Positions 27,062 through 32,620 of a DNA stretch of 35,954 nt are shown piece by piece; the first letter of the stretch is position 1; every line of letters starts with the position of its first letter. The translations under genes and the position numbers were made by a program. Below the pieces are notes generated by a model. It was not told the origin of the DNA and searched no databases. It saw only the letters and a list, made by a program, of their open reading frames with translations. Source of the stretch: an uncultured Clostridia bacterium (GTDB lineage: Bacteria > Bacillota > Clostridia > Oscillospirales > Oscillospiraceae); contig CAMWQV010000002.1 in NCBI GenBank assembly GCA_947176425.1, positions 1-35,954 on the forward strand, given 5' to 3'.

Positions 27062-28066
27062 GTGGGAAAATTTGAGGACGGCTGCTATGGCAGTTTGAAG
27101 GGGATTGCCCTGATCGCCAAGGTATTGGCCGGACGGTGCAAGATGCACTATACCCGTGTTGCGGCCGGAAAGGGGACGATCCCCGATGGCATGACACCAA
27201 AAACGATGGAAGCGCCGCCTGATTATGTTATGGACGCTATGATCAGTGCCATCACAAACCCCGTAGACGGCGAGTGTCAGGTGACGGTACAGCTGAATAG
27301 CGCAAATGTAGAGGCAGGGTTTTATGTGACCAGCCTTCTGCTGTATGCAGAGGACCCGGACGAGGGAGAAGTCCCGTTTACATACCTGGTCCTGGAAAGC
27401 GAGCCGGAATGGATTCGCCCGTCCAGTTCTATCGTGGGCAAACTGGCGACCTTTGACATTATCGCGGCGGTGGGCGATGTGGATACCGTGACCGCGACCA
27501 TCGACCAAAACTCCCTTGCTACAGCGGCAGCAGTGGCACGGATGATCGGGGAGCACAACTCCGACCTGACCGCCCATGCAGATATCCGCTGGGCGCTGGA
27601 GCATCTGGTGGCCCTGGTGGATGTGACCATTCCAGTGGCAGGGTGGATCGAGGAGGCAGCTGGACAGTACAAGCTCCGCCGGGATGTGGATGTGAGCGGC
27701 GTCACAGCTGAGATGATCCCCCGGCTGACCATCCCAGTGGAGCAGGAGGGGGCTGCGGCGGCCTGCGGCCTGAGCCCAGTGGTGGAGACAGTAGAAGGTG
27801 CGATTCGCTTGCGGGGAATGTCCGCACCTAAGGCGGATATTCCCGCCAGCCTGGTGCTGCTGCAACACGGTGTAGAGGTGAGTCAGCTTCCGCAGGGGCC
27901 AGGCGCAGTTGCCGCCATGCCGTTGGCTACCGAACACACGCCCGGCGCTGTAAAACCGGGCCGCGGGCTGCTGGTGGACAAGGACGGCACTCTGTCGGTA
28001 GACATGGCCTCGGACGAGGATTTCAAGCAGATGATGGACGGCCTGGACGGCGGAGAGGGGGCTTAA
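27062..28066 (+). CDS. Tail fibre / tail-collar-type protein
   Basis: GTG start; 'YTRVAAGKGTIPDGMTPKTMEAPPDYVMDAMISAITNPVDGECQVTVQLNSANVEAGFYVTSLLLYAEDPDEGE' typical tail fibre N-terminus. Confidence 0.75.
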   Translation: MGKFEDGCYGSLKGIALIAKVLAGRCKMHYTRVAAGKGTIPDGMTPKTMEAPPDYVMDAMISAITNPVDGECQVTVQLNSANVEAGFYVTSLLLYAEDPDEGEVPFTYLVLESEPEWIRPSSSIVGKLATFDIIAAVGDVDTVTATIDQNSLATAAAVARMIGEHNSDLTAHADIRWALEHLVALVDVTIPVAGWIEEAAGQYKLRRDVDVSGVTAEMIPRLTIPVEQEGAAAACGLSPVVETVEGAIRLRGMSAPKADIPASLVLLQHGVEVSQLPQGPGAVAAMPLATEHTPGAVKPGRGLLVDKDGTLSVDMASDEDFKQMMDGLDGGEGA

Positions 28067-28499: not shown

Positions 28500-29168
28500 A
28501 TGAGTATTGCAAAAGCAGAGCGGTTTACGGCTTTGAAGGCCAAGGTCAAGGCTGAGATGAAGCGGCGCAACCAGTCCGGGTCCGTGGCGGACTACGGCGG
28601 CACGGCGTATGACTACACCGTTCCCCCGGCGGCGGGCAAGACCATCCGGGCCGAGCACCGGGACAAGCTGGTGGGACCGATGCGGGCCATCAACAGTGAC
28701 CTGGTGCCCGCCAGCAAGGGGACCGTCATCAAGGAGGACGAGCTGGCAAACATGGAGACCCGTGTGGCGGTCTGGGGTGCCAGAGACATGACGGACCGGA
28801 GCGCGAGCGACTGTAAGTCCGGCTGCACTGGGACCTGTTACACCGGGTGCGCTATGGGGTGCTTCTCCTGCGGTGGGGCGTGTTCAGACGGCTGCACTGG
28901 CTGCGGGTCCGGGTGCCCTACTGGGTGTTCTGGGTGTGGGTCGGGGTGTCCCAATGGGTGCCAGTCGTGCCCAAGCGGATGCTCGGACGCTTGCTCGGGG
29001 TGTGGGGACGCTTGTTCCATTGGCTGTACTGGATGCATAATGATGTGTGATAATACATGCAAAAATGAATGCGGTAACAGCTGTCAGGAAAACTGCTCTC
29101 CATGCACCAGCGCCTGTTATTCGACGTGCATGGTTTACTGCACATCGCATGGATCAAGCGAACCGTAA
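28500..29168 (+). CDS. Cys-rich CXXX-repeat protein, putative radical SAM substrate (RiPP-type precursor)
   Basis: 222 aa; about 104-aa N-terminal region without cysteine, then 30 Cys in 110 aa with spacing mostly 3-3-2; upstream of a radical SAM/SPASM gene. Confidence 0.8.
   Translation: MSIAKAERFTALKAKVKAEMKRRNQSGSVADYGGTAYDYTVPPAAGKTIRAEHRDKLVGPMRAINSDLVPASKGTVIKEDELANMETRVAVWGARDMTDRSASDCKSGCTGTCYTGCAMGCFSCGGACSDGCTGCGSGCPTGCSGCGSGCPNGCQSCPSGCSDACSGCGDACSIGCTGCIMMCDNTCKNECGNSCQENCSPCTSACYSTCMVYCTSHGSSEP
28812..29141 (+). repeat. Cysteine array CxxxCxxxCxx (11-residue period), 30 Cys codons
   Basis: First Cys codon 28812, last 29139-29141; spacers read 3,3,3,3,2,3,3,2,3,3,2,3,3,2,3,3,2,3,3,2,3,3,3,3,3,2,3,3,3. 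Confidence 0.9.
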
Positions 29169-29178
29169 GGAGTATGTC

Positions 29179-29811
29179 ATGGAAAAAATGAGTGTGATTA
29201 AACAGACTAAGGCCATTATCACCGCCGTAGTTGGGTCAAAGCGGTATGGATATGCTTCCGATTCCTCCGACGGAGACTATTTTTTGCTCACCCATAACAC
29301 GGATATCGCACATCATGACCGAGTATCAAACATCACATATTTTTTGTGGTCCATCCAACACATCAAAGGTCACTGGGGGCATCCTATGCTGATCGACGAC
29401 CTGACAGCGGACTGCCAGGGGCATGAGACCCTATGCTCATTCCTGCGGGATCATAAGCACGATATCGCTTATGCGGCTCCAGCGAATACAGTGCGTTTCG
29501 GGCTAGAGTACATCGGAGCAAAGGAGAGCATTGGGATTGATACCGCTGTAAAACCTGCGTTATGTACCGCCTTTATTCTCGGGCATATGATCCAGGGGGC
29601 AGAGGACCCGGTCCTGTTTACAGAGCAGGAGAAGGCAATACTTACCAGAGTGCGCACCGGTGAGGTGTTGTCGGAGGAACGAGTGGACATCTACCGCCGG
29701 ACACTTACCACAGAGAACCTGGACAAGCTCCGGCGGATGCCGGAAAACCTGACTGTAAAAAACGTGCTGTTTGCGCTGCTTGATGAAATCTGCAAGGAGG
29801 AGACACCATGA
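29179..29811 (+). CDS. Predicted nucleotidyltransferase-fold protein
   Basis: 'VVGSKRYGYASDSSDGDYFLL' fits the GSxxxGxxxxxSDxDxxxx nucleotidyltransferase signature; ATG with AAGGAG 6 nt upstream. Confidence 0.7.
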   Translation: MEKMSVIKQTKAIITAVVGSKRYGYASDSSDGDYFLLTHNTDIAHHDRVSNITYFLWSIQHIKGHWGHPMLIDDLTADCQGHETLCSFLRDHKHDIAYAAPANTVRFGLEYIGAKESIGIDTAVKPALCTAFILGHMIQGAEDPVLFTEQEKAILTRVRTGEVLSEERVDIYRRTLTTENLDKLRRMPENLTVKNVLFALLDEICKEETP

Positions 29812-30338
29812 TCGACCGTATTTTACCCGTGATTCATGACACAGGCGACTATCTCACCGCCCTGTCCTTGTACAAAGCCGACGCTCCACTAACCAAGGAA
29901 GAGGCAGACAAGCTGGTGGCCATCTACCAGAAATATGACGAGGGACTGGAGGATGCCGCTCTGGCTAAGCTGTGTATTGCCCTGGACCTGCTGCCGGGGC
30001 GGACGGAGGAGGACGCCGCCGATTTTTATGGGTTGGAGCTGCCGGTCGCTGATTTGAATGTTTTGTTCCAGGTCAAGGATATCATTTCCGGCCAGCTGGA
30101 ATTGACGGCTGGAAACGCTAACCAGGTGGTAGAGGTCGTAAAGAGCGGCAAGCTGACCCGGCCCGTGGACATCATCCTGGCCCGGACGGCTCTGGACGTT
30201 ATGGCAGGGGCCTGGAACTTCGGCGGGCTGCGGGAACAGACCCAGGCGCTGGCGGAATTTTTGTCCGGCCTGGGCACCGAGGAACTGGACAAGTACAGCA
30301 CCATCGTGGAGGAGGCAAGAATCAAATGCAGGAGCTGA
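29808..30338 (+). CDS. Hypothetical protein of the Cys-rich peptide cassette
   Basis: ATGA overlap with upstream gene and overlap with downstream start; no recognised motif. Confidence 0.7.
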   Translation: MIDRILPVIHDTGDYLTALSLYKADAPLTKEEADKLVAIYQKYDEGLEDAALAKLCIALDLLPGRTEEDAADFYGLELPVADLNVLFQVKDIISGQLELTAGNANQVVEVVKSGKLTRPVDIILARTALDVMAGAWNFGGLREQTQALAEFLSGLGTEELDKYSTIVEEARIKCRS

Positions 30339-30673
30339 AGAAACCCTCAGTCACGGCTTCGCCGTGCCAGCTCCCTTTTCAAGGGAGCCTGAATGAAATC
30401 ACCATTCGCCTGCCGGAGGAGACTGTGAGCTACCTCCAGCGGCTGGACTACGAAATCGGCGGGCTGAACGTCCTCCACACGCACGCGCTCAATGCCGGGG
30501 TGCCATTGGTGAAGCGCTTGGAAATCCGCCGGGAGCACCAGGAGGTCTACGCCGAGTACCAGCTTGCCAAGCAGGAGATGTGGGCGGAGTTCGCGCCGCA
30601 GTTCCCCAGCTTCAAGCGCTGGTGGGTGGACTTCCAAACGGGTCTCCTCCATGTGGAGGTGCCCAATGAATAA
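30326..30673 (+). CDS. Small accessory protein, possibly CXXX-repeat peptide modification system protein-like
   Basis: Small protein ending 'FAPQFPSFKRWWVDFQTGLLHVEV' directly upstream of and overlapping the radical SAM gene; family resemblance is from memory. Confidence 0.5.
   Translation: MQELKKPSVTASPCQLPFQGSLNEITIRLPEETVSYLQRLDYEIGGLNVLHTHALNAGVPLVKRLEIRREHQEVYAEYQLAKQEMWAEFAPQFPSFKRWWVDFQTGLLHVEVPNE
30344..30390. repeat. REP-like palindromic repeat inside CDS
   Basis: CCCTCAGTCACGGCTTCGCCGTGCCAGCTCCCTTTTCAAGGGAGCCT: two perfect hairpins, CACGGC-TTC-GCCGTG (30352-30366) and GCTCCCTT-TTC-AAGGGAGC (30370-30388). Confidence 0.75.
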
Positions 30674-31976
30674 CGACCGCAGACACGCCCGCCAGTTTCA
30701 GAACACTTACCCCTCCTATTACCCTGGGAAAAAGATCAAGACCGTGACCTTCATCGTCACCCACCAGTGCAATTTGAGGTGTTCCTACTGCTACGAGGGG
30801 CACAAATCGGACAAGAAAATGTCCCTGGAGACGGCGAAGCGGTGTGTGGACCTGCTCTTTGCCGAGGATGCCAAAAATTCCGAGCTGGTCAATGACACCG
30901 AGGCCAACGGGCTGATCATTGAGTTCATCGGCGGGGAGCCCTTCTTGGAGATCGACTTGATCGACCAGACCATGGAGTATTTCCTGACTCAGGCCATTGA
31001 GCTGAACCACCGCTGGAAAACCCGGTACATGATCAACATTTCCACCAACGGCACCTTGGGGGACGACCCCCGTGTCCAGCAGTTTATGCGCAAATACGCG
31101 GGCCGCCTGTCCATCGGCGTGACCATCGACGGCGACAAGGCCGCCCACGACGCCTGCCGGGTGGACTGTAATGGCTGCGGGTCCTACGACAAGGCGATCA
31201 AGATGTTCCGTGAAGTGGCAGGGCCGGACGGCAAGCGGACCACCAAGTACACCATCGCTCCCGGCAATATCGGCCTGTTCGCCTCCTCGGTGCGGCACCT
31301 GGTGCTGGAGGAGGGGGTGGACACCCTCAACTGCAATTGCGTGTACGAGGAGGGCTGGACACCGGAGCACGCCAGGGAACTGTACAGGCAGCTCAAAGAG
31401 GTGTCCGATATGGTCCAGGAGTCCGGGACCGATACCTACATCTCCATTTTGGACTGGGAGGCCGGGAACCACCTGCCGGACACCGAGACCCAGAACTGGT
31501 GCGGCGGGGATGGGCGGATGCTGGCCTTTGACGTGGACGGGACGGTGCTGCCGTGTATGCGCTACTCACCCATCTCCATCGCCAACCAGCCCGTCTACCG
31601 CATTGGCGACGTGGACTGCGGGATCGGCACCAGGGAGGACGACGCCCAGCGGCTGGCGGATTTGCGGTCCATCACCCGGCAGTCTCAGAGTGAGCAGCGG
31701 TGTTTGGACTGTCCCATCAATCAGGGCTGTGCCTGGTGTACCGCTTACAACTACGAGCGTACCGGGACGCCCAACCAGCGGGTCACTTACATCTGCGATA
31801 TGCACAAGGCCAGGGTGCTGGCCCAGTGCTATCATCACAATAAGCTCCACCTGCTCCACCGGTCGCATGAACCCAAGAAAATCAACATCCCCATGGAGTG
31901 GGCGCTGGAAATTATCTCTTCCGAGGAGTGGGAGATGCTGCTGGAGCTGGAGCGGCAGTGTTTTGATGAGGCGTAG
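30666..31976 (+). CDS. Radical SAM/SPASM peptide maturase (CXXX-repeat target type)
   Basis: CxxxCxxC motif 'THQCNLRCSYCYEGH'; 'EFIGGEPFLEIDLI' (GGEP); SPASM cysteines 'WCGGDGRMLAFDVDGTVLPCMRYSP...RCLDCPINQGCAWCTAYNYERTGTPNQRVTYICDMH'. Confidence 0.92.
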   Translation: MNNDRRHARQFQNTYPSYYPGKKIKTVTFIVTHQCNLRCSYCYEGHKSDKKMSLETAKRCVDLLFAEDAKNSELVNDTEANGLIIEFIGGEPFLEIDLIDQTMEYFLTQAIELNHRWKTRYMINISTNGTLGDDPRVQQFMRKYAGRLSIGVTIDGDKAAHDACRVDCNGCGSYDKAIKMFREVAGPDGKRTTKYTIAPGNIGLFASSVRHLVLEEGVDTLNCNCVYEEGWTPEHARELYRQLKEVSDMVQESGTDTYISILDWEAGNHLPDTETQNWCGGDGRMLAFDVDGTVLPCMRYSPISIANQPVYRIGDVDCGIGTREDDAQRLADLRSITRQSQSEQRCLDCPINQGCAWCTAYNYERTGTPNQRVTYICDMHKARVLAQCYHHNKLHLLHRSHEPKKINIPMEWALEIISSEEWEMLLELERQCFDEA

Positions 31977-32020: not shown

Positions 32021-32620
32021 ATGGCTAACAATGAAAACAACAAAAAAGTCCCGACCCTGGCGCAGATGATCGAGGCGCACAAGAAGAGCAATGCCAGCGT
32101 CAAAGCGTTGGACAAGAAGGTCGAGGATCTGAAAGCCGCCGCAATGACGGAGGAGCGGGTGACCGCCGCCATCAACGCCAAGGTTTCCAGTACTTACAAG
32201 GCTGGCGGCAGCGTGGCTTTCGCGGATCTGCCCGAGCTGAGCGAGGCAAACATGGGCCTGGTGGTTAACGTGACCGACAAGTTCACCACCACCGATGATT
32301 TTGTGGAGGGTGCGGGGAATAAACACTCCGCGGGTACCAACGTGGCCGTGGTTCTGGCGGGTGAGGTTTACAAGTACGACGTGATGTCCGGCTTTGTGGA
32401 TCTGTCCGGCCTGGTGGAGAAGGAGGACGGCAAGGGCCTGTCCGAGGAGAACTTCACCGCCGCTGATAAGGCCAAGCTGGACGGTATTGAGTTCGCCACC
32501 GATGAGGAGGTGGCCGCCGCGCTGGCGGAGATTTACGGTAAGGACGAGACCGAAGATGAGGATGGCGGCAAGATCAAAGTCGATGAGACCGAGACCGAGA
32601 GCGGGAGAGGCGACCACTAA
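32021..32620 (+). CDS. Tail-fibre-like structural protein
   Basis: 'KAGGSVAFADLPELSEANMGLVVNVTDKFTTTDDFVEGAGNKHSAGTNVAVV' recurrent in phage fibre/structural proteins. Confidence 0.65.
   Translation: MANNENNKKVPTLAQMIEAHKKSNASVKALDKKVEDLKAAAMTEERVTAAINAKVSSTYKAGGSVAFADLPELSEANMGLVVNVTDKFTTTDDFVEGAGNKHSAGTNVAVVLAGEVYKYDVMSGFVDLSGLVEKEDGKGLSEENFTAADKAKLDGIEFATDEEVAAALAEIYGKDETEDEDGGKIKVDETETESGRGDH

What the first reader, a model, noticed from the sequence alone, without database searches (positions are those of the whole stretch)
28500..31976. RiPP-type radical SAM cassette with a Cys-array substrate embedded in a phage tail module
Five co-directional, coupled genes (Cys-array protein, nucleotidyltransferase-fold protein, unknown, small accessory, radical SAM/SPASM) sit between tail-fibre-like genes on both sides. 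SPASM enzymes adjacent to regularly spaced Cys peptides are established thioether-forming RiPP systems (ranthipeptide/sactipeptide type, CXXX-repeat families). Finding one inside a myovirus structural block suggests either a phage-carried antimicrobial/accessory 'moron' or a post-translationally crosslinked virion protein. The phage role is inference.
Basis: partly seen in the sequence, partly recalled or inferred. Interest (0 to 1): 0.92.

Follow-up and report, generated by a model that had tools for sequence, protein, structure and literature searches.

The report
Phage tail cassette crosslinking a cysteine-array protein
Many uncultured phages, including this one, carry next to their tail-fibre genes a cysteine-studded protein together with its own radical-SAM modifying enzyme, which suggests that phages build a chemically crosslinked tail or accessory protein using peptide-natural-product chemistry; the modification itself has not been shown.

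Summary
The window carries a contractile-tailed phage in which five coupled genes (28500-31976) follow tail-fibre genes. The enzyme is a complete radical SAM/SPASM protein over the cut-off of NCBIfam TIGR04115 (CXXX-repeat peptide maturase). The first gene encodes a conserved N-domain of about 104 residues and 30 regularly spaced cysteines. The small fourth gene is a remote homologue of the CXXX accessory protein TIGR04116. The cassette recurs: a search by the Cys protein's N-domain finds the enzyme within 5 kb in 35 of 39 viral loci (3 of 4 misses at contig ends); a search by the enzyme finds the Cys protein or a Cys array in 74 of 80. In 71 non-redundant arrays 97.4% of 3,237 Cys-Cys steps are exactly 3 or 4. 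Unlike the bacterial CXXX system, the phage version has no Tat signal, no TatC and no TIGR04119 partner, lies next to tail-fibre genes, and one array is fused to a Gly-rich domain that is elsewhere a neighbour gene. Best reading: a phage tail-module protein crosslinked (probably thioether) by a dedicated maturase. Pairing is strongly supported; chemistry and virion location are inferred. New variant of a known kind.

The parts
27062..28066 (+). Tail fibre protein (N-terminal fibre domain), gene upstream of the cassette
   Evidence: phrog_7037 tail fiber E 9.1e-38; homologue 56% identical upstream of the cassette in L005
28069..28482 (+). Short fibre-like protein directly before cysA
   Evidence: weak phrog_18983 tail fiber E 7e-4; homologous segments next to the cassette in L004, L005, L008, L089
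28500..29168 (+). cysA: Cys-array protein, 222 aa, probable substrate
   Evidence: homologues in 39 viral loci by its N-domain; 35 of 39 have the rSAM within 5 kb
28500..28811 (+). conserved N-domain of cysA (about 104 aa; candidate recognition/docking domain)
   Evidence: alignments A2, A6, A10; AF2 model helical, moderate confidence pLDDT 65
28812..29141 (+). Cys array: 30 Cys at CX3C/CX2C spacing
   Evidence: 97.4% of 3237 steps in 71 arrays are 3 or 4
29179..29811 (+). nucleotidyltransferase-like protein (GSxxYG...SDxDYF motif), optional accessory
   Evidence: phrog_388 E 1e-3; homologues adjacent to cysA in L110, L126, L165; L165 copy hits phrog_388 E 5e-6
29808..30338 (+). midC: unknown protein, 176 aa
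   Evidence: homologues only in close relatives L004, L005, L008, L110
30326..30673 (+). smallD: accessory protein, remote homologue of TIGR04116 CXXX-repeat modification protein
   Evidence: profile-profile Prob 96.2%, E 2.3e-9, 88 columns; shuffled controls at most 19.5%; fused to the rSAM N-terminus in L113, L114, L145; AF2 strand-helix-helix-strand-strand, pLDDT 93.9
30666..31976 (+). radical SAM/SPASM maturase, 436 aa
   Evidence: TIGR04115 383.4 bits over cut-off 350, E 1.3e-114; CX3CX2C and 7 SPASM Cys invariant in A5
32021..32620 (+). downstream phage gene of unknown function
   Evidence: phrog_38190 E 1.5e-27; homologues after the cassette in L004 and L005

Best explanation
A phage late-gene (tail-module) cassette in which the radical SAM/SPASM enzyme (30666-31976), helped by the small TIGR04116-like protein (30326-30673), post-translationally crosslinks the Cys array of cysA (28500-29168). 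The conserved N-domain of cysA probably serves as the recognition and/or docking part. The crosslinks are most likely intrachain thioethers from Cys sulphur to carbons of nearby residues, repeated every 3 or 4 residues. This would turn a floppy Gly/Ser/Thr/Cys sequence into a stiff, protease- and reduction-proof rod or tip that is a tail-fibre accessory or virion component. Shown by sequence: the family of the enzyme, strict array spacing, near-obligate pairing of enzyme and array in diverse phages, and the tail-module position. Inferred: that cysA is the substrate (strong), that the bond is a thioether (moderate), that the product is in the virion (moderate), and the mechanical role (speculative).
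For: TIGR04115 over the curated cut-off, PapB ranthipeptide maturase next. Invariant radical SAM and SPASM cysteines. Reciprocal co-occurrence 35/39 and 74/80; no such array more than 6 kb away in 540 kb of the same phage loci; control 1 of 77 bacterial SPASM loci. Array spacing 97.4% 3 or 4. smallD homologous to TIGR04116 and fused to the enzyme in three loci. Inteins (Hint plus LAGLIDADG) interrupt the enzyme at its CX3CX2C motif in L091 and at a SPASM Cys in L090 and L091, which by general knowledge of inteins points to a gene under strong selection. Upstream neighbours from 47 loci are dominated, among named PHROGs, by tail-fibre, tail-collar, tail and virion families; downstream neighbours include endolysin and holin families. 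Array fused to a Gly-rich domain in L194 (PF12810), whose PHROGs are also those of the gene upstream of cysA in L121. Array length changes fast while the enzyme stays similar (41 vs 72 Cys at 82% enzyme identity, L144/L186), as expected of a structural repeat protein.
Against: No chemistry is shown, and the closest solved relative by sequence is only E 9e-19 (5wgg). No virion proteomics: tblastn of two cysA N-domains against 50,697 phage records found one uncultured record. In L126 cysA is present without a detectable enzyme in the 31.8-kb record. In L153, L155 and L159 a second array ORF has no N-domain, so the N-domain cannot be strictly required if those are modified. In L089 cysA is on the opposite strand. 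The virion reading rests on gene position and few fusions. The PapB Cys-X3-Asp/Glu acceptor rule is not visible in the arrays.
Confidence: 0.6

Rival explanations
1. A phage-carried secreted RiPP (bacteriocin, signal or lysogeny 'moron'): the matured Cys-array protein is released and acts on competitors or the host.
For: SPASM enzymes with Cys-rich precursors make bacteriocins and signals in bacteria (PMC8326336); the bacterial CXXX system appears to export its array by Tat.
Against: None of 116 phage cysA hits has a Tat motif, and no TatC or TIGR04119 partner was found in the phage loci. No exporter or leader peptidase was noticed among the listed neighbour genes. The products are large (17-126 Cys). 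The locus lies in structural/lysis regions, including viral contigs over 200 kb.
Confidence: 0.13
2. A metal- or redox-buffering Cys protein (metallothionein-like, or an Fe-S/sulphur reservoir), with the radical SAM enzyme acting on something else or using the array as a sulphur source.
For: Cys is 26% of array residues; radical SAM enzymes need Fe and S.
Against: Step 2 (CXC, typical of metallothioneins by general knowledge) makes up only 0.2% of steps. The array is coupled to a peptide-maturase family and its accessory and placed next to tail fibres.
Confidence: 0.08
3. The enzyme does modify cysA, but not by thioether bonds (for example epimerisation, dehydrogenation, C-C crosslinks or Cys rearrangement).
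For: SPASM maturases do varied chemistry (PMC8326336); the acceptor motif of PapB (Cys-X3-Asp/Glu, PMC9413430) is absent; position i+4 is usually another Cys.
Against: The nearest characterised families by score (PapB, SCIFF maturase, QhpD) form thioethers.
Confidence: 0.17
4. Chance neighbours: a Cys-rich protein and an unrelated radical SAM auxiliary gene.
For: L126 has cysA and an NTase-like gene without the enzyme.
Against: Reciprocal co-occurrence 35/39 and 74/80 across distant phages, and no far array in 540 kb.
Confidence: 0.02

Closest known systems
CXXX-repeat radical SAM RiPP system of Bacteroidales and others (NCBIfam TIGR04115, TIGR04116, TIGR04119, targets TIGR04114/04117/04118)
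   Same: The enzyme passes TIGR04115; smallD is a remote homologue of TIGR04116; arrays use Cys every 4 residues, sometimes 3 (bacterial 83% step 4 and 10% step 3; phage 73% and 25%).
   Different: The phage version lacks TIGR04119, the Tat signal and TatC, has a new N-domain on the substrate, sits in phage tail modules, has longer and more variable arrays, and its enzymes fall outside the 8-member bacterial group (SH-aLRT 100).
PapB / freyrasin ranthipeptide maturase (NF047865)
   Same: Second-best NCBIfam hit (171 bits); radical SAM plus SPASM; multiple crosslinks from repeated Cys motifs (PMC9413430).
   Different: Half the family cut-off (340); the arrays have no Cys-X3-Asp/Glu rule.
SCIFF maturase (TIGR03974; PDB 5wgg)
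   Same: Best sequence match with a solved structure (E 9e-19); the family makes Cys thioethers (PMC8326336).
   Different: 98 bits against cut-off 425; SCIFF is a small six-Cys peptide of Clostridia. The host assembly has a separate SCIFF-like locus, L002.
PHROG 1802 radical SAM proteins of jumbo and Campylobacter phages (e.g. SPN3US gp103)
   Same: Same PHROG (E 1e-63), phage-borne.
   Different: About 25% identity, and no Cys-array gene among the seven genes checked around it in SPN3US.

Membership tests
TIGR04115 CXXX-repeat radical SAM peptide maturase | score over curated cut-off (350 bits) | tested here: met
   383.4 bits, E 1.3e-114
TIGR04115 CXXX-repeat radical SAM peptide maturase | CX3CX2C plus SPASM Cys set | tested here: met
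   all invariant in 20-sequence alignment A5
Bacterial CXXX-repeat RiPP system | neighbouring target with Cys every 3-4 residues | tested here: met
   the window array itself hits no TIGR04114/04117/04118 model
Bacterial CXXX-repeat RiPP system | TIGR04116 accessory protein | tested here: inconclusive
   NCBIfam model not hit, but profile-profile Prob 96%, E 2.3e-9
Bacterial CXXX-repeat RiPP system | TIGR04119 partner maturase | tested here: not met
   absent from all phage loci; present in L107 and L108
Bacterial CXXX-repeat RiPP system | Tat signal on target and TatC nearby | tested here: not met
   0 of 116 cysA hits; no TatC in phage loci; seen in Bacteroidales loci
PapB-type ranthipeptide | NF047865 cut-off (340 bits) | tested here: not met
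   170.9 bits
PapB-type ranthipeptide | Cys-X3-Asp/Glu crosslink motif | tested here: not met
   residue i+4 is Cys in 73% of steps; Asp is about 3% and Glu 1% of array residues
PapB-type ranthipeptide | S to beta/gamma-carbon thioether | not testable with these tools
   needs mass spectrometry or NMR
SCIFF system | TIGR03974 cut-off (425 bits) | tested here: not met
   98.2 bits
RRE-containing RiPP system | small partner with PqqD-like winged-helix fold | tested here: inconclusive
   smallD model (pLDDT 93.9) has no PDB match at E<=0.001; no direct RRE comparison made
Phage virion/tail protein | found in the virion | not testable with these tools
   no proteomics; only position and fusion evidence
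Phage virion/tail protein | encoded in tail/late gene module | tested here: met

The most novel reading that the evidence does not exclude
Phages have domesticated a radical-SAM RiPP system to build part of their tail: a virion protein whose Cys arrays (17 to 126 Cys) are enzymatically stapled into a crosslinked rod or tip. This would be a radical-SAM-modified virion protein, with the bacterial Tat-exported CXXX system as its cellular cousin.
Probability: 0.45. Interest if true: 0.93.

Novelty: new variant of a known kind. Interest (0 to 1): 0.82.

Why it matters
Known radical-SAM RiPP systems make small secreted or cellular peptides. Here the same enzyme family appears to have been taken over by many phages for a large repeat protein next to tail fibres. 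If true, it adds a class of covalent protein crosslinking to virion assembly, gives a function to a set of 'unknown' phage genes, provides extreme multi-site substrates for studying how one maturase installs dozens of bonds, and offers stiff, genetically encoded stapled rods for engineering. It also makes the unexplained bacterial CXXX system testable by comparison.

Tried and rejected
Direct NCBIfam/Pfam/PHROG hits for cysA and smallD: none useful. Cellular spread: cysA was found in no other genome of 295 in the order or 399 in the phylum sample, and TIGR04115 over its cut-off in no other of the 399, so it is not a typical host gene. An 11-residue (hendecad) repeat as the general rule was rejected: it is clear in the window, but across 71 arrays the aab-aab pattern is 61 observed against 43.6 expected with a shuffle range up to 62. 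The idea that SPN3US-type jumbo phage radical SAM genes have Cys-array partners was not supported for the genes checked. smallD as a PqqD-like RRE: no PDB match. The 45-bp inverted-repeat stretch at the start of smallD as a dispersed repeat: single copy in this assembly. Literature: full-text searches for phage plus ranthipeptide, CXXX repeat, TIGR04115, or tail fibre plus RiPP gave no paper describing such a system in the held library; the original TIGR paper was not held. AF2 of the cysA N-domain was only moderate (pLDDT 65); its best viral structure matches are uncharacterised or 'TNFR-Cys' phage proteins, probably homologues.
Full report
OBSERVATION. The window belongs to a contractile-tailed phage: portal, head protease, major head protein, tail sheath, tape measure and baseplate wedge genes are recognisable by PHROGs, with Dit-like and Baseplate_J Pfam domains. 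The enzyme start is ATG 30666, inside the end of the preceding gene.

THE ENZYME. The 436-aa protein passes the curated cut-off of NCBIfam TIGR04115, 'radical SAM peptide maturase, CXXX-repeat target family' (383 against 350 bits). Next come the PapB ranthipeptide maturase (171 bits) and, further down, the SCIFF and QhpD-type maturases (about 98 bits each), all below their own cut-offs. CX3CX2C and seven SPASM cysteines are invariant in 20 phage relatives.

THE CYS PROTEIN. cysA has a conserved N-domain of about 104 residues and an array of 30 Cys. In 71 non-redundant homologues, 3,237 Cys-Cys steps are 72.6% step 4 and 24.8% step 3, with 2.6% anything else; shuffled arrays give 10.7% and 14.3%. 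Arrays hold 17 to 126 Cys (median 38) and are mostly Cys, Gly, Ser and Thr. Between phages whose enzymes are 82% identical, the array can change from 41 to 72 Cys (L144/L186).

CO-OCCURRENCE. A viral-contig scan with the cysA N-domain gave 39 loci; the enzyme lies within 5 kb in 35, and three of the four exceptions end at the contig edge. The fourth (L126) lacks the enzyme in its whole 31.8-kb record. A scan with the enzyme found 183 viral relatives, of which the best 80 were kept: 74 have cysA or a strict Cys array within 5 kb, 65 by the N-domain model, and 68 have smallD. At least two of the remaining enzymes (L178, L211) are read through TAG, and in L211 an array with an N-domain appears once TAG is read as Gln. 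No further strict array lies more than 6 kb from the enzyme in 540 kb of the same contigs, and only 1 of 77 bacterial loci with other SPASM enzymes has one. Some loci are near-copies (for example L121-L125), so the counts overstate independence; however, 74 phage enzyme rows remain distinct in the tree. The cassette is rare in sampled bacterial genomes.

THE ACCESSORY PROTEIN. smallD hits no family model, but a profile of 47 phage sequences aligns over 88 columns with seven bacterial TIGR04116 proteins at Prob 96.2%, E 2.3e-9; forty column-shuffled controls reach at most 19.5%. It is fused to the N-terminus of the enzyme in L113, L114 and L145, so it most likely works with the enzyme. Its AF2 model is confident (strand, helical hairpin, beta hairpin; pLDDT 93.9) and matches no PDB fold at E<=0.001.

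COMPARISON WITH THE BACTERIAL SYSTEM. In a sample of 198 genomes of the order of a Bacteroidales bacterium, six carry TIGR04116. All six loci also encode TIGR04115-like and TIGR04119-like proteins (fused in L231). Five of the eight bacterial-type loci examined show a clear twin-arginine signal plus Cys-array target, and several have TatA/TatC-like genes next door (by eye). Bacterial arrays are 83% step 4 and 10% step 3. The phage loci have no TIGR04119, no TatC, and no Tat motif in 116 cysA hits. The eight bacterial enzymes form one group (SH-aLRT 100); the window groups with L004, L005 and L088. The root is uncertain (midpoint, long outgroups), so no direction of transfer is claimed.

LOCATION IN PHAGES. 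Among 47 genes upstream of the cassette, the named PHROG matches are tail-fibre, tail-collar, tail and virion families; downstream genes include endolysin and holin families. In L194 an array is fused to a Gly-rich domain (PF12810, E 8e-25; the reading frame appears to shift after it) whose PHROGs are also those of the gene upstream of cysA in L121. Other long cysA forms carry extra non-Cys regions (L183, L198, L213) without clear family hits. The enzyme is interrupted by inteins in L090 and L091. TAG read as Gln is seen in L116 and L143.

OPTIONAL GENES. The NTase-like gene recurs directly after cysA in L110, L126 and L165, and midC only in close relatives, so they are accessory rather than core.

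INTERPRETATION. Shown: an enzyme, accessory and Cys-array module found in many phages, in tail regions. Strong inference: cysA is the enzyme's substrate. Moderate inference: thioether crosslinks, because the nearest characterised maturases make them (PMC8326336, PMC9413430). The PapB acceptor motif is absent, so the acceptor residues are unknown. Moderate inference: the product is a virion or tail accessory protein, from position, fusion and lack of export genes. Speculative: that it forms a stapled rod or tip used in adsorption.

VERDICT. Observation confirmed; interpretation partly supported and extended. New variant of a known kind. The enzyme's family is known; the phage tail-linked substrate family, the lack of the Tat/TIGR04119 parts and the scale of the arrays are not described in the papers searched, and that absence is only indicative because most subscription papers are not held.

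Noticed in passing
L116 9971-12860, L143 7557-9940; L178, L211: Cassette genes are read through in-frame TAG at Gln-like positions, so these phages probably recode TAG.
   Followed up: partly
L091 8801-12346, L090 9881-12346: Inteins with Hint and LAGLIDADG homing parts sit inside the radical SAM enzyme, two in L091 (at the CX3CX2C motif and at a SPASM Cys) and one in L090.
   Followed up: partly
L154 15519-17855: A second, more distant radical SAM gene is followed by a 364-aa protein with 81 Cys in a different Asp/Asn/Cys-rich pattern (CSCNSDCADGCGSDC), perhaps a parallel enzyme-substrate pair.
   Followed up: partly
L126 7597-9581: Two cysA copies and an NTase-like gene without any detectable radical SAM gene in the 31.8-kb record.
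   Followed up: partly
L153 8365-9348, L155 8288-9285, L159 8241-9578: cysA is followed at once by a second array-only ORF without N-domain.
   Followed up: partly
window 30326-30390: The start of smallD contains an extra stretch with two short inverted repeats (CACGGCTTCGCCGTG, GCTCCCTTTTCAAGGGAGC) absent from relatives, where the usual start codon reads CTG; single copy in this assembly.
   Followed up: partly
L011 8856-9952: A Cys-array ORF next to a different SPASM enzyme in an Acidobacteriaceae contig, the only hit among 77 control loci.
   Followed up: no
L002 354-1961: The window's own assembly has a separate 48-aa Cys-rich peptide next to a SCIFF-like radical SAM maturase.
   Followed up: no
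L108 2920-8108: A genome of the same order has a TIGR04115-TIGR04119 fusion enzyme with two small Cys-rich peptides lacking a Tat signal, a further bacterial variant.
   Followed up: partly
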